Source: Oxalobacteraceae bacterium (GTDB taxonomy: Bacteria > Pseudomonadota > Gammaproteobacteria > Burkholderiales > Burkholderiaceae_D). Taken from it: a DNA stretch of 64,000 bases. Below, piece after piece: positions 53,012 to 60,836 of this stretch. The notes under the pieces were generated by a model that saw nothing but the letters and a program-made list of their open reading frames with translations, did no database searches and had not been told where the DNA came from. The DNA lies in NCBI GenBank assembly GCA_023259175.1, contig JAHFQV010000003.1, forward strand, positions 27,560 to 91,559. The letters run 5' to 3'. The position numbers and the translations under genes were made by a program. How positions within the stretch are numbered: position 1 is the stretch's first letter; each line of letters opens with the position of its first letter.

Positions 53012-53041
53012 TTGCCAATCGCGGCGACTTATTGCTATAGT
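53012..53041 (+). promoter_or_regulatory. Candidate sigma-70 promoter for the aroG leader transcript
   Basis: TTGCCA - 18 bp - TATAGT, about 45 bp upstream of the leader ORF. Confidence 0.5.
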
Positions 53042-53085
53042 CGCCTCACTCCATTTCTTTTTTAGCCAAAAGCTTGAGCAAGAAC

Positions 53086-53157
53086 ATGCACACTGCGCGA
53101 TTTTATTTTCACTTTTACTTTAGCTATTCCAACCCCAAGGCGGTGGAGAAGCGGTAA
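53086..53157 (+). CDS. Putative Phe/Tyr-rich leader peptide MHTARFYFHFYFSYSNPKAVEKR
   Basis: ATG CAC ACT GCG CGA TTT TAT TTT CAC TTT TAC TTT AGC TAT ... TAA; 4 Phe + 3 Tyr in 9 consecutive codons, followed by intrinsic terminator and aroG. Confidence 0.8.
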   Translation: MHTARFYFHFYFSYSNPKAVEKR

Positions 53158-53237
53158 GTTCACATAAAGCGAAAATAAAAGCGAAAACAGAACACAACCG
53201 ATCTCAAAAAGACCGCCCTAGCAGGCGGTTTTTTTTT
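53128..53237 (+). promoter_or_regulatory. Putative transcription attenuator (competing hairpins) controlling aroG
   Basis: GGCGGT at 53139-53144 in the leader is complementary to ACCGCC at 53212-53217 (terminator 5' arm); competing pause hairpin UCC-A-ACC/GGUGGA at 53128-53147. Confidence 0.7.
53206..53237 (+). terminator. Intrinsic terminator inside the aroG leader
   Basis: ACCGCC-CTAGCA-GGCGGT stem-loop followed by a T9 run (53229-53237). Confidence 0.85.
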
Positions 53238-53276: not shown

Positions 53277-54329
53277 ATGCAACGTACCGATGATTTACGT
53301 ATTCGAGAGATGAAAGAATTGCTTCCACCTTCGCATCTGATTCGCGAGTTTTCGTGTTCGGACAAGGCTTCGGAAGTGACCGCCAATGCACGCGCTGCAC
53401 TCCACAATATTTTGCAGGGAAACGACGATAGAGTGATGGTGGTGATAGGGCCATGTTCCATTCACGACACCAAGGCGGCTTTGGAATACGCGCGTTTGCT
53501 GGCAAAGGCACGCCGCGATTATGCTGGCGAGTTGGAAATTGTGATGCGCGTCTATTTTGAAAAACCGAGAACCACCGTCGGCTGGAAGGGTCTAATTAAC
53601 GATCCCTACATGGACAATAGTTTTCGGATCAATGATGGTTTGCGAATTGCGCGTGAGTTACTGCTCAATATCAATGAGCTTGGCTTGCCTGCAGGGACCG
53701 AGTATCTCGATATGATTAGCCCGCAATACATCGCAGATTTAATTAGTTGGGGCGCGATTGGTGCACGCACCACCGAGTCGCAAGTGCATCGTGAACTCGC
53801 ATCCGGATTATCTTGTCCTGTTGGTTTTAAAAATGGAACCGATGGAAACGTTAAGATTGCGGTTGATGCCATTAAAGCGTCTTCGCAACCCCATCATTTC
53901 TTATCGGTCACTAAAGGCGGACATTCCGCCATCGTTTCAACCAACGGAAACGAAGACTGCCACATTATTTTACGCGGTGGAAAAACCCCGAATTATGATG
54001 CGCAGAGTGTCGATGCTGCGGCGAAAAGTATTGCGGCCAATGGTTTAGAACCGCGCATCATGATCGACGCTTCGCATGCGAATAGTTCAAAAAATCATCT
54101 CAATCAAATTCCGGTTTGCGCCGACATTAGTGCCCAAATTGCCGCGGGTGACCAGCGCATTGTTGGGGTGATGATCGAATCGAATCTAGTCCAGGGACGG
54201 CAGGATTTGGTTTCAGGTCAAGAACTCGTGTACGGATTATCGGTGACCGATGCCTGTATCGATTGGGCTGACAGTGAAAAGGTCTTGGAAACGTTGGCAG
54301 CAGCGGTGAAGCAAAGACGGGCTCGCTAG
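53277..54329 (+). CDS. aroG: 3-deoxy-7-phosphoheptulonate synthase (DAHP synthase, class I)
   Basis: VVIGPCSIHDTKAALEYA, MRVYFEKPRTTVGWKGLINDP, GIVMIDASHANSSKNH-like region. Confidence 0.95.
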   Translation: MQRTDDLRIREMKELLPPSHLIREFSCSDKASEVTANARAALHNILQGNDDRVMVVIGPCSIHDTKAALEYARLLAKARRDYAGELEIVMRVYFEKPRTTVGWKGLINDPYMDNSFRINDGLRIARELLLNINELGLPAGTEYLDMISPQYIADLISWGAIGARTTESQVHRELASGLSCPVGFKNGTDGNVKIAVDAIKASSQPHHFLSVTKGGHSAIVSTNGNEDCHIILRGGKTPNYDAQSVDAAAKSIAANGLEPRIMIDASHANSSKNHLNQIPVCADISAQIAAGDQRIVGVMIESNLVQGRQDLVSGQELVYGLSVTDACIDWADSEKVLETLAAAVKQRRAR

Positions 54330-56786: not shown

Positions 56787-59700
56787 ATGAATTTATCCAG
56801 CGCGATCGAAAAAAAACAGCGTAATCAAAATCCAAATATTTTGTATGGTGCGATTAAGCCTGAACTAATGCGCGAGGAATGTCTTGCCGATCTATTGGAG
56901 GCGAGCATTCAGAGATGCCCCGATAAAATTGCACTTTCGACCGACACAGAAACACTCACGTATCGTGAATTAGGACAGGCCGCCGATCAAGCGGCGAGCC
57001 GATTAATTGCCGCAGGTGCAGGGCCGGGGAAAATTGTGGGCTTGTGGCTGCCGCGTGGAATTGATCTCTTGGTGATGCAAGCGGCGATTGCTAAAACAGG
57101 CGCGGCGTGGTTGCCTTTTGATTCCGAAGTACCGGTTGAACGTATCGCGATTTGTTTGGAGGATGCGCAGGCCGTGGGCTTGGTAAGCGCCCGGGCATTT
57201 TTGCCGCAGCTTGTGAATTTCGAGAAAACGGTTTTTCTAGCTGAGGACTTGACGCTGCCCGAGGCAGGTCATTTACTCAAGCGCAGCAAAGGAAAAGTAG
57301 ACGACCCTGCCTATGTGATTTATACCTCAGGTTCTACTGGCAAGCCTAAGGGTATCGCAATTAGTCAGGCTAGCATTTGTCATTTTTTGCGTAGTGAAAA
57401 TAGCGTCTTGGGCGTAGTCGAAACAGATCGTGTTTATCAAGGATTTTCAGTGGCATTTGATATGTCATTTGAAGAAATTTGGATCAGCTATTTGGTGGGC
57501 GCGACTTTGTGGATTGCAAGTCGGGAAGTTGCGCTGGACCCTGATGCTTTGCCACGCGCCTTATTGCGTCAAAAAATTACCGTTTTACATGCAGTTCCGA
57601 CTTTACTGGCCTTGTTTAGCGTGGACGTGCCTAGCTTGCGTATCGTTAATCTCGGTGGGGAAATGTGTCCCGAAAGTTTAGTGAATCGCTGGTCAACGCC
57701 AGAGCAAGAAGCTGAGCACGGCGCGCGTAAAATGTTTAACACCTACGGCCCAACTGAGGCTACGGTGTCGGCGAGTTTGGCCTTATTGCGAGCCCATGAG
57801 CCGGTGACGATAGGCCTGCCATTACCCAATTACGGTTTGTTGGTGATAGACGCAGAGGTTGAAAAAGGATTGCGACTCTTAGCCCGTGGCGAAACCGGTG
57901 AGCTATGTATTTTTGGCCCGGGGGTCGCTGCGGGTTATTTGGGTCGCCCCGATTTGACGGCGGAAAAATTTCTTGATAATCCTTGGGCAGATCAAGAATG
58001 TAATGCACGTTTGTATCGTACCGGTGATCTGGCACGGATTAGTGAAGAGGGCAGTGTGCAATGCCTGGGTCGCGCGGATGATCAAATCAAGATTCGTGGA
58101 TTTCGCGTGGAATTGGGCGAGATAGAAGCGGTTTTGGCTAAGCAAGATGGCGTTGGAACAGTCGCCGTTTTATTGCGCAATGAAGATAGCGTTGATCAGT
58201 TGATTGCCTTTATGGTTGCCGAACCGGAGGCGCAGCAGACTAGTTTAAGTAATGCGGTTTTACGCAATGCACTTAGCCAGACTTTGCCTGCGTATATGAT
58301 ACCTGCGCGCTATATTTTGCTCGATGAAATGCCACGTTTGAGCTCAGGAAAAATTGATCGTAAAACGCTGAAATCCTTGCCGCTCGCAGCACCCGAAAAT
58401 TTGGCTGAGGACGATGTCGCACAAAGCGAGGCAGAGCAGGTTTTGTTTGCGTCGATGCGACAATTATTTCCTGGACAAACAATAAAACGGGAAGCGGATT
58501 TTTTTGCCGAACTGGGCGGGCATTCTTTATTGGCGGCGCGTTTGGTGTCCTTACTTCGCCGCGATGCGCGCTATGCCTATTTCAAAATCAGTGATGTGTA
58601 TCAACAGCGGCAATTAAAGGAAATCGCACGCGTGATGGAAGCGAATACCTGTGTGCCAAATCAAAGCGCGCAAGTCGCTTGGCTGCCGGCACCCGATTGG
58701 AAGCGTTGGCTATGTGGATGTGGACAGGCATTGGTGATTCCTTGCTTGATTGCTTTGCGTATGTTGCAGTGGCTCGCCCCATTTTTTGCCTATCATTTTT
58801 TGACAGGCGATACCGAGGATTCGATTCCGTTTGCGATCACCTTGTCGCTTTTGTTTTTCCTACTAATCACGGTGGCCGAATTTGGTTTTGCGATCGCTGC
58901 AAAGTGGCTTATTCTTGGACGCATGAAGGCTGGGCATTATCCGCTCTGGGGTTGGACCTATTTTCGCTGGTGGTTGGTCGATAGAATATTAGAGGCGGTG
59001 CCGGTGTATATGCTCAATGGCTCCTCCATGTATGTGTGGTGGCTACGTGCTTTAGGGGCAAAAATTGGACGAGAGGTGAATATCGGCTCGGTCAGCTTGC
59101 GCGCCCCCGATTTATTGGAAATCGGTGATGGCGCAAGCATAGGCAATGCCAGTAATTTTGAAAATGTGCGGGTAGAAAGGGGTGTACTTCGGGTCGGGAA
59201 AATTACCCTTAAAGACCATGCTTACGTCGGCTCTTATGCTTTGTTAGAAGGGGACACTCGACTGGAAAAATACGCACATCTGGAAGGGCAGTCGGCTATC
59301 GTCGAAGGGCAAGTGATACCTGAAAATCGGATATGGACAGGCTCGCCCGCAATTGATAGCGGTGTTTACGATCCCGCCCATCGTAGCGCCCGTTTGCCAG
59401 TATCGCGTTTGCGTTATTTTTTTGAAGGTGTTTATTTTGTCCTGGGTAGTTTATTGGTGACAGCCTTATTTTTCTTGCCTGTGTTTCCAAGTTTTATGTT
59501 GATCGATTACCTCGATACGGCCGGTAGTGTCGGTAGTTTTCAACACGCTGAAATTGAAACCCAGCTATTGCAATATTTCCTCATGGCCTTTCCCGCTACG
59601 GCTGTATTGATATTGTGTACGGCGCTGTTATCAGCAGGTATTCGTTGGGGCATACTTGGGAAAATGAAACCCGGTCATTACCCAGTACACAGCTTGGCTT

Positions 59701-60836
59701 ACTGTAAAAAATGGATGGTCAATCAAATTCAAGAAAGTAGTCTCAACGTTTTACACGGTGTTTATGCGACCGTTTTTTCTCCATTTTGGTATCGCTTATT
59801 AGGCGCGGAAGTGGGCAAAGGAACTGAAATTTCAACCGCGCTCGGCGTCGTGCCGGATATGCTGACTTTGGGGGACGAGTGCTTTATTGCCGATGCGGTG
59901 ATGTTGGGTGATGAAGAAATTGATCAAGGCTGGATGACCGTGCAAGCGACTTGCGTATCTCGTCGAAGTTTCGTTGGTAATGGTGCCTATGTGCCGGATG
60001 GAACGATCATTCCTGAAAATGTTTTGATCGGCGTGCATACCAGCGTGCCACGCAACGAAGCGATGAAAAGTGGTGACACTTGGATAGGTTCGCCGCCTAT
60101 CAATTTACCCGCTCGTGAAGAAGTCAAAGGTTTTCCAGAACATTTAACCTATCGCCCCAGCTTTTGGCGGCGCATCGCCCGCGCCTGTATCGAAGCATTT
60201 CGGATTATTGCACCCCATGCCTTGGTCATCGCAATTGGTTATGTCATCGTATTGGATTTGATGCCGATTGCCGCTGATGAACAATGGCGGGAAGTCTTAA
60301 GCGATTTGGTGGTTTCAGGTTTGTTGTATGGATTCGGATGTTTTGCTTTTATTTTGGTATTGAAATGGGTTTTGATTTTCAGGTACAAGAAAAAGAGCTA
60401 TCCGATGTGGACTCCCTTTGTATGGTTGTCGGAGGCGATTACCAATCTTTATGAGGGTATCGCTATCCCGAACTTTCTACGCTATTTAAAGGGCACGCCT
60501 TGGCTGCCGATCGCCTTTAGATTATTGGGCTGTCGTATCGGTAAAGGGGTGTATATGGATACGACCGATATTACGGAGTTTGATTGCGTCAGTATTGGCG
60601 ATTACAGTGAACTCAATGCCGCGGTTTGCCCGCAGACGCATTTATTCGAAGATCGTGTGATGAAGATTGATCACGTTCAAATCGGTGCTTACGTCTATAT
60701 GGGGCCGCGTAGTTTTGTCCTGTACAGCGCACAAGTAGGTGACAATGCGAAATTAGCGTCCTTGACTTTGGTGATGAAGGGGGAATTTATTCCAGCCAAT
60801 TCAAGCTGGCGCGGCTGTCCTGCTGCGATTGCTTAA
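56787..60836 (+). CDS. Pls/PosA-family NRPS-like protein: adenylation - carrier - three (TM pair + left-handed beta-helix) units
   Basis: YVIYTSGSTGKPKG, FNTYGPTEATVSA, YRTGDLARISEEG, carrier GGHSLLAARL, three hexapeptide-repeat blocks (LGAKIGREVNIG, LGAEVGKGTEIS, LGCRIGKGVYMD) separated by hydrophobic segments. Confidence 0.88.
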   Translation: MNLSSAIEKKQRNQNPNILYGAIKPELMREECLADLLEASIQRCPDKIALSTDTETLTYRELGQAADQAASRLIAAGAGPGKIVGLWLPRGIDLLVMQAAIAKTGAAWLPFDSEVPVERIAICLEDAQAVGLVSARAFLPQLVNFEKTVFLAEDLTLPEAGHLLKRSKGKVDDPAYVIYTSGSTGKPKGIAISQASICHFLRSENSVLGVVETDRVYQGFSVAFDMSFEEIWISYLVGATLWIASREVALDPDALPRALLRQKITVLHAVPTLLALFSVDVPSLRIVNLGGEMCPESLVNRWSTPEQEAEHGARKMFNTYGPTEATVSASLALLRAHEPVTIGLPLPNYGLLVIDAEVEKGLRLLARGETGELCIFGPGVAAGYLGRPDLTAEKFLDNPWADQECNARLYRTGDLARISEEGSVQCLGRADDQIKIRGFRVELGEIEAVLAKQDGVGTVAVLLRNEDSVDQLIAFMVAEPEAQQTSLSNAVLRNALSQTLPAYMIPARYILLDEMPRLSSGKIDRKTLKSLPLAAPENLAEDDVAQSEAEQVLFASMRQLFPGQTIKREADFFAELGGHSLLAARLVSLLRRDARYAYFKISDVYQQRQLKEIARVMEANTCVPNQSAQVAWLPAPDWKRWLCGCGQALVIPCLIALRMLQWLAPFFAYHFLTGDTEDSIPFAITLSLLFFLLITVAEFGFAIAAKWLILGRMKAGHYPLWGWTYFRWWLVDRILEAVPVYMLNGSSMYVWWLRALGAKIGREVNIGSVSLRAPDLLEIGDGASIGNASNFENVRVERGVLRVGKITLKDHAYVGSYALLEGDTRLEKYAHLEGQSAIVEGQVIPENRIWTGSPAIDSGVYDPAHRSARLPVSRLRYFFEGVYFVLGSLLVTALFFLPVFPSFMLIDYLDTAGSVGSFQHAEIETQLLQYFLMAFPATAVLILCTALLSAGIRWGILGKMKPGHYPVHSLAYCKKWMVNQIQESSLNVLHGVYATVFSPFWYRLLGAEVGKGTEISTALGVVPDMLTLGDECFIADAVMLGDEEIDQGWMTVQATCVSRRSFVGNGAYVPDGTIIPENVLIGVHTSVPRNEAMKSGDTWIGSPPINLPAREEVKGFPEHLTYRPSFWRRIARACIEAFRIIAPHALVIAIGYVIVLDLMPIAADEQWREVLSDLVVSGLLYGFGCFAFILVLKWVLIFRYKKKSYPMWTPFVWLSEAITNLYEGIAIPNFLRYLKGTPWLPIAFRLLGCRIGKGVYMDTTDITEFDCVSIGDYSELNAAVCPQTHLFEDRVMKIDHVQIGAYVYMGPRSFVLYSAQVGDNAKLASLTLVMKGEFIPANSSWRGCPAAIA

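What the first reader, a model, noticed from the sequence alone, without database searches (positions are those of the whole stretch)
53086..53237. Phe/Tyr-responsive attenuator in front of the DAHP synthase gene aroG
Seen directly: a 23-codon ORF MHTARFYFHFYFSYSNPKAVEKR with codons F Y F H F Y F S Y, then an intrinsic terminator (ACCGCC-CTAGCA-GGCGGT-T8, 53212-53237), then aroG at 53277. GGCGGT at 53139-53144, just downstream of the aromatic codons and inside the leader ORF, repeats the terminator 3' arm and so can pair with its 5' arm (ACCGCC) as an antiterminator. A competing pause hairpin UCC-A-ACC/GGUGGA (53128-53147) overlaps it. Established: ribosome-stalling attenuators such as E. coli pheA (leader [15 protein letters not shown]) have this geometry. 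Inference: low charged tRNA-Phe or tRNA-Tyr stalls the ribosome at 53101-53127, frees GGCGGT, disrupts the terminator and induces aroG. E. coli aroG is instead controlled by a repressor (TyrR), so this would be a different solution; mixed F/Y codons could make it sense both products.
Basis: partly seen in the sequence, partly recalled or inferred. Interest (0 to 1): 0.85.

Follow-up and report, generated by a model that had tools for sequence, protein, structure and literature searches.

The report
Phe/Tyr-reading attenuator controlling aroG
In front of the gene for the first enzyme of aromatic amino acid synthesis lies a short peptide gene full of phenylalanine and tyrosine codons plus an RNA switch; it is kept across many related bacteria and very probably turns the enzyme gene on when these amino acids run short, a classic type of control apparently not yet described in this bacterial group.

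Summary
The leader ORF 53086-53157 (MHTARFYFHFYFSYSNPKAVEKR) lies behind a conserved promoter-like sequence and is followed by an intrinsic terminator 39 nt before aroG, a class I DAHP synthase. A leader is recognisable in 76 of 80 Oxalobacteraceae aroG loci and in 12 other families of the order. The aromatic run is conserved as amino acids; the region after it (GGCGGT, copy of the terminator 3' arm) is conserved as RNA and is read in all three frames in different lineages. Outside the family its flank covaries with the terminator 5' arm. Folding with a ribosome blocking the RNA lets the antiterminator form for stalls up to the last aromatic codon (Tyr14) and not beyond; the same holds within two codons in all 101 leaders tested. 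Most likely it is a classical ribosome-mediated transcription attenuator. Many other Burkholderiales leaders also carry a conserved Trp codon, so they may read all three end products. It is not in Rfam; no Burkholderiales report was found in open literature, but DAHP synthase attenuators are known in Corynebacterium and proposed in Acholeplasma. There are no expression data; Tyr sensing is unproven.

The parts
53012..53041 (+). promoter-like TTGCCA - 18 nt - TATAGT; predicted start about 53048
   Evidence: same motif (spacer mostly 18, TATAGT) in 45 of 72 Oxalobacteraceae leaders against 1.1% of shuffles
53076..53078 (+). weak Shine-Dalgarno-like GAG, 7 nt before the leader ATG
   Evidence: sequence; relatives can have a stronger one, e.g. 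cacGAGG in L004
53086..53157 (+). leader ORF MHTARFYFHFYFSYSNPKAVEKR
53101..53127 (+). control codons F Y F H F Y F S Y (codons 6-14)
   Evidence: aromatic identity kept with TTT/TTC and TAT/TAC exchange; modelled switch lies right after codon 14
53123..53152 (+). regions 1 and 2: pause hairpin 53123-53135 with 53140-53152 (-11.3 kcal/mol)
   Evidence: folding
53139..53144 (+). region 2 core GGCGGU, copy of the terminator 3' arm
   Evidence: invariant in the aligned Oxalobacteraceae; covarying flank elsewhere
53139..53217 (+). antiterminator 2:3 (-21.1 kcal/mol): 53139-53144/53212-53217, 53146-53149/53202-53205, 53152-53155/53197-53200, 53158-53161/53190-53193
   Evidence: folding; only the core helix is predicted on the family alignment
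53212..53237 (+). intrinsic terminator 3:4 (ACCGCC / GGCGGU, loop CUAGCA, U tract; -15.8 kcal/mol with the A-U extension)
53277..54329 (+). aroG, class I 3-deoxy-7-phosphoheptulonate (DAHP) synthase, 350 aa
   Evidence: NF006723 equivalog and PF00793

Best explanation
A ribosome-mediated transcription attenuator of the trp/phe/his type controls aroG. Transcription starts near 53048 and the leader peptide is translated behind RNA polymerase. With enough charged tRNA-Phe and tRNA-Tyr the ribosome runs past codon 14, covers region 2 (53139-53144), and regions 3 and 4 form the terminator at 53212-53237, so transcription stops before aroG. When charged tRNA-Phe (and perhaps tRNA-Tyr) is scarce, the ribosome stalls on codons 6-14, region 2 stays free and pairs with region 3 before region 4 is made, and aroG is transcribed. 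Shown by sequence and comparison: the parts, their conservation, the alternative pairings and the geometry. Inferred: the regulatory response itself, which amino acids are sensed, and the kinetics.
For: 76 of 80 Oxalobacteraceae aroG loci carry the leader; 24 of 30 and 27 of 30 loci in two other families have leader plus terminator. Aromatic columns vary synonymously or exchange F/Y/W, whereas the Ala and Val codons over region 2 are GCG in 67 of 67 and GTG in 63 of 67, and the codon before varies in residue but ends in G in all listed cases. Region 2 is read in all three frames in different lineages. Covariation of region 2 with region 3: the pair next to the core is U-A in 14, C-G in 9, U-G in 1 of 30; covariation score reached by 1 of 500 shuffles; 88% of cells paired against at most 45% when slid. 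Permutation p = 5e-5 over 29 leaders, median p 0.004 with one leader from each of 12 families. The terminator covaries too. Blocking the RNA under a stalled ribosome gives P(2:3) 0.77-0.95 for codons 6-14 and 0 from codon 15; in 101 leaders the last permissive codon is within 2 codons of the last aromatic one, and 722 of 757 aromatic residues lie in the permissive zone. Conserved promoter. In seven sampled genomes with the leader on one DAHP synthase gene, the fetched paralogue had no F/Y-rich leader with a terminator behind it.
Against: No transcript, termination or expression data. Within Oxalobacteraceae the core pairs are invariant, so they give no covariation there. The 1:2 hairpin was not tested by covariation. 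At equilibrium the full transcript always favours the terminator (P(3:4) 0.99), so the switch relies on order of synthesis. The leader's Shine-Dalgarno is weak in this genome. Permutation tests are not corrected for tree shape, and region 2 was searched for downstream of the fourth aromatic codon, which builds some of the agreement in. A TyrR-type regulator is present.
Confidence: 0.92

Rival explanations
1. The ORF and terminator are an independent small gene or small RNA that happens to sit before aroG, which has its own promoter downstream of the terminator.
For: A complete promoter-ORF-terminator unit is present, and in several Undibacterium species there are more than 90 nt between the terminator and aroG, room for a promoter.
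Against: The peptide tail is conserved as RNA and in different frames, not as a protein. Region 2 covaries with region 3 and the switch point coincides with the last aromatic codon, none of which a plain small gene needs. The unit stays with aroG across families. In the window only 39 nt separate the terminator from aroG, with no promoter-like site found there on the + strand.
Confidence: 0.04
2. The leader works, but mainly as an amino acid-independent coupling or pausing device, or as a sensor of some other translation stress, with TyrR-type repression doing the aromatic sensing.
For: A TyrR-type HTH domain is encoded in the genome. Leaders prefer TTT strongly (71% against 12% in aroG of GC-rich relatives), which could serve RNA openness rather than sensing.
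Against: The conserved property is aromatic residues, including exchanges between Phe, Tyr and Trp, ending at the modelled switch.
Confidence: 0.04
3. Chance combination of a T-rich stretch that reads as F/Y codons with a common terminator stem.
For: F/Y runs alone are not rare in this genome, and ACCGCC/GGCGGT is a plain GC-rich stem.
Against: Conservation in 76 of 80 relatives and in other families, with covariation.
Confidence: 0.005

Closest known systems
Corynebacterium glutamicum aroR-aroF attenuator (Neshat et al. 2014, as reviewed in PMC11802643)
   Same: Leader peptide with Phe-Tyr-Phe in front of a DAHP synthase gene; ribosome stalling at these codons raises transcription; same enzyme step.
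   Different: Actinobacterium; reported to respond to Phe but not Tyr. The two leaders were not aligned here. The Burkholderiales leaders mostly have 5-10 aromatic codons, often with Trp.
Escherichia coli pheL-pheA attenuator (Rfam RF01859 Phe_leader)
   Same: Same general plan: Phe-rich leader peptide and alternative hairpins. The best Rfam match to the window is this family, at 29.4 bits.
   Different: Below the gathering score of 55; controls prephenate dehydratase, not DAHP synthase; Phe only.
uORFC-13-1 motif upstream of aroF in Acholeplasma (PMC8632094)
   Same: Proposed Phe-dependent leader and terminator in front of a DAHP synthase gene.
   Different: Different phylum and motif; the paper describes at least one Phe codon from a U run.
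E. coli ilvL and thrL multivalent leaders (own knowledge)
   Same: One leader that reads several amino acids.
   Different: Branched-chain amino acids or Thr/Ile, not aromatic.

Membership tests
Ribosome-mediated transcription attenuators (trp/phe/his/ilv type) | short translated leader ORF rich in codons for the end product(s) of the pathway | tested here: met
   translation itself is inferred from codon-level conservation
Ribosome-mediated transcription attenuators (trp/phe/his/ilv type) | intrinsic terminator between leader ORF and structural gene | tested here: met
Ribosome-mediated transcription attenuators (trp/phe/his/ilv type) | region 2, next to the control codons, can pair with the terminator 5' arm (mutually exclusive 2:3 and 3:4) | tested here: met
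Ribosome-mediated transcription attenuators (trp/phe/his/ilv type) | region 1:2 protector or pause hairpin overlapping the control codons | tested here: inconclusive
   folds at -11.3 kcal/mol in the window; not tested by covariation
Ribosome-mediated transcription attenuators (trp/phe/his/ilv type) | a stall at control codons frees region 2, and passing them covers it | tested here: met
   occlusion folding, (a model, not an experiment)
Ribosome-mediated transcription attenuators (trp/phe/his/ilv type) | expression rises on starvation for the encoded amino acid | not testable with these tools
   needs experiment
Rfam RF01859 Phe_leader | score at or above the gathering threshold of 55 bits | tested here: not met
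   29.4 bits, E 0.074; relatives also below threshold or without a match

The most novel reading that the evidence does not exclude
Across Burkholderiales the DAHP synthase leader is a multivalent attenuator that in many families reads all three pathway end products: Phe, Tyr and Trp codons sit together in one leader (for example FYFWFS, with W present in 26 of 27 leaders of one family sampled over 30 genera), so one RNA element would meter total aromatic supply at the entry step. In Oxalobacteraceae it is mostly tuned to Phe and Tyr.
Probability: 0.55. Interest if true: 0.62.

Novelty: new member of a known kind. Interest (0 to 1): 0.5.

Why it matters
It gives a concrete, testable mechanism for control of the entry step of aromatic synthesis in a large group of soil, plant-associated and clinical bacteria, where the usual picture is borrowed from E. 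coli TyrR. The family is widespread, is not in Rfam, and shows lineage-specific retuning of which amino acids a leader reads: a natural experiment on how attenuators set their specificity. It would also matter for engineering Burkholderiales to make aromatic products.

Tried and rejected
Rfam at gathering and relaxed thresholds: no family above threshold for the leader. RNAalifold on the Oxalobacteraceae alignment: the core helix is invariant and shows no covariation, so it does not test the pairing. Equilibrium folding of the full leader: always the terminator, uninformative for a kinetic switch. F/Y-run pattern over the own genome: not rare alone, rejected as a statistic. Upstream regions of a chorismate-binding enzyme gene (likely trpE), a prephenate dehydratase gene (pheA type) and the second DAHP synthase gene of the genome: no similar leader seen. 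40 DAHP synthase genes from other orders of the class: only one (L206) has the leader, so it is mainly a Burkholderiales feature. A first pass on minus-strand loci used the wrong strand and was redone. The one-per-family permutation used 16 lineage labels of my own; it was redone with the 12 families as given by the tool.

Full report
Observation. The downstream gene is AroG by a curated equivalog model and PF00793. The window comes from an Undibacterium-like Oxalobacteraceae genome, judged by its nearest named relatives. The gene directly upstream is a nitroreductase-family ORF, with tldD before it.

Conservation in the family. Of 80 named loci with close AroG relatives, 76 have a short ATG ORF with an F/Y-rich run some 160-300 nt upstream. 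The four others are a contig edge (L017), an aroG directly behind tldD without a leader (L065), a leader that looks decayed (L071), and a terminator without a recognisable leader ORF (L082). In 72 distinct leaders a terminator with ACCGCC/GGCGGT follows. A promoter-like TTGCCA-18-TATAGT lies about 25 nt before the ATG in 45 of 72, against 1.1% of shuffles.

Two kinds of constraint in one ORF. Aromatic positions exchange TTT/TTC, TAT/TAC and F/Y/W, so the amino acid class is what is kept. Over region 2 it is the reverse: GCG in 67 of 67 and GTG in 63 of 67 although Ala and Val have four codons each, and the codon before may be Lys, Thr, Gln, Met, Glu or Arg but ends in G. In Duganella and Glaciimonas the same nucleotides are read in other frames, and in distant lineages all three frames occur. 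The two TTT codons and the TAC next to region 1 are also nearly invariant as nucleotides; why is open.

Beyond the family. DAHP synthase upstream regions from about 110 genes of the order were scanned; 27 had at least 7 aromatic residues in a window of 12, against about 0.12% of shuffles. 29 leaders from 12 other families were anchored, all with terminator and region 2. Two families sampled more deeply gave 24 of 30 and 27 of 30 loci with leader and terminator. Outside the order only one of 40 had it (L206). The families are unnamed in the tool; no species names are claimed for them.

Covariation. On a gapless block alignment of 30 leaders from outside Oxalobacteraceae, 2:3 pairs form in 88% of cells; the base pair next to the core is U-A in 14, C-G in 9 and U-G in 1, and the covariation score is reached by 1 of 500 shuffles. 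The 3:4 terminator covaries more strongly. A permutation of partners gives p = 5e-5 over 29 leaders and a median p of 0.004 with one leader from each of 12 families. These tests do not correct for tree shape.

Geometry. In the window the antiterminator segment folds at -21.1, the terminator at -15.8 and the 1:2 hairpin at -11.3 kcal/mol. With the RNA blocked up to 12 nt past the A-site codon and region 4 not yet made, 2:3 pairing has probability 0.77-0.95 for stalls at codons 6 to 14 and zero from codon 15. Codon 14 is the last aromatic one. In 101 leaders the last permissive codon is within -2 to +2 of the last aromatic codon, and 722 of 757 aromatic residues lie in the permissive zone, which holds 1404 of 2387 codons. 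Region 2 was by definition sought downstream of the fourth aromatic codon, so some of this agreement is built in.

What is sensed. Phe codons dominate, Tyr codons are always present in Oxalobacteraceae, and Trp is in 12 of 72 there but in 18 of 29 distant leaders and in 26 of 27 of one family. Reading of Phe is likely; reading of Tyr and Trp is inference. In C. glutamicum the FYF leader aroR is reported to respond to Phe only (PMC11802643). Leaders use TTT for Phe in 71% of cases where aroG of the same GC-rich loci uses it in 12%; the reason is open.

Relation to known systems. It works like pheL-pheA and aroR-aroF. It is not a member of Rfam Phe_leader by score. Searches of an open-access library found DAHP synthase attenuators in Corynebacterium and a proposal in Acholeplasma (PMC8632094), none in Burkholderiales. 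A regulon survey of Proteobacteria describes TyrR and TrpR control in gammaproteobacteria (PMC5343134); the passages read mention no such leader, nor does a text search of a Burkholderia cenocepacia start-site study for attenuation, leader peptides or aroG (PMC4603805). Subscription literature was not searched, so priority is uncertain.

Verdict. A real, conserved attenuator of a classical kind, very likely functional, apparently unreported for this group, with a possible three-amino-acid version in other families.

Noticed in passing
L242-L300 (two families of the order): AroG leaders with a conserved Trp codon (FYFWFS, FFWHL): 26 of 27 and 17 of 24 leaders carry W.
   Followed up: partly
L003-L081 leaders: Strong TTT preference in leaders (71%) compared with aroG (12%) in GC-rich Oxalobacteraceae.
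   Followed up: partly
L002 (G000:C217:17246-18268): Second class I DAHP synthase of the same genome, 52% identical, with no aromatic leader seen upstream.
   Followed up: partly
L198 (G000:C168:5173-5310): TyrR-type HTH domain protein in the window's genome, above the curated cut-off.
   Followed up: no
upstream of aroG in L071, L065 and L082: Apparent decay or loss of the leader: L071 has an altered region 2 (GGTGGT) and a disrupted F/Y frame, L065 has aroG right behind tldD, L082 keeps only the terminator.
   Followed up: partly
L206: The only leader found outside the order among 40 genes: FYRWYYFPKPPAEEGVRAF with a GCCGCC/GGCGGC terminator.
   Followed up: partly
window 56787-60836: 1349-aa ORF that reads like an adenylation domain followed by a carrier-like part and membrane and hexapeptide-repeat segments (NRPS-like); not searched.
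   Followed up: no
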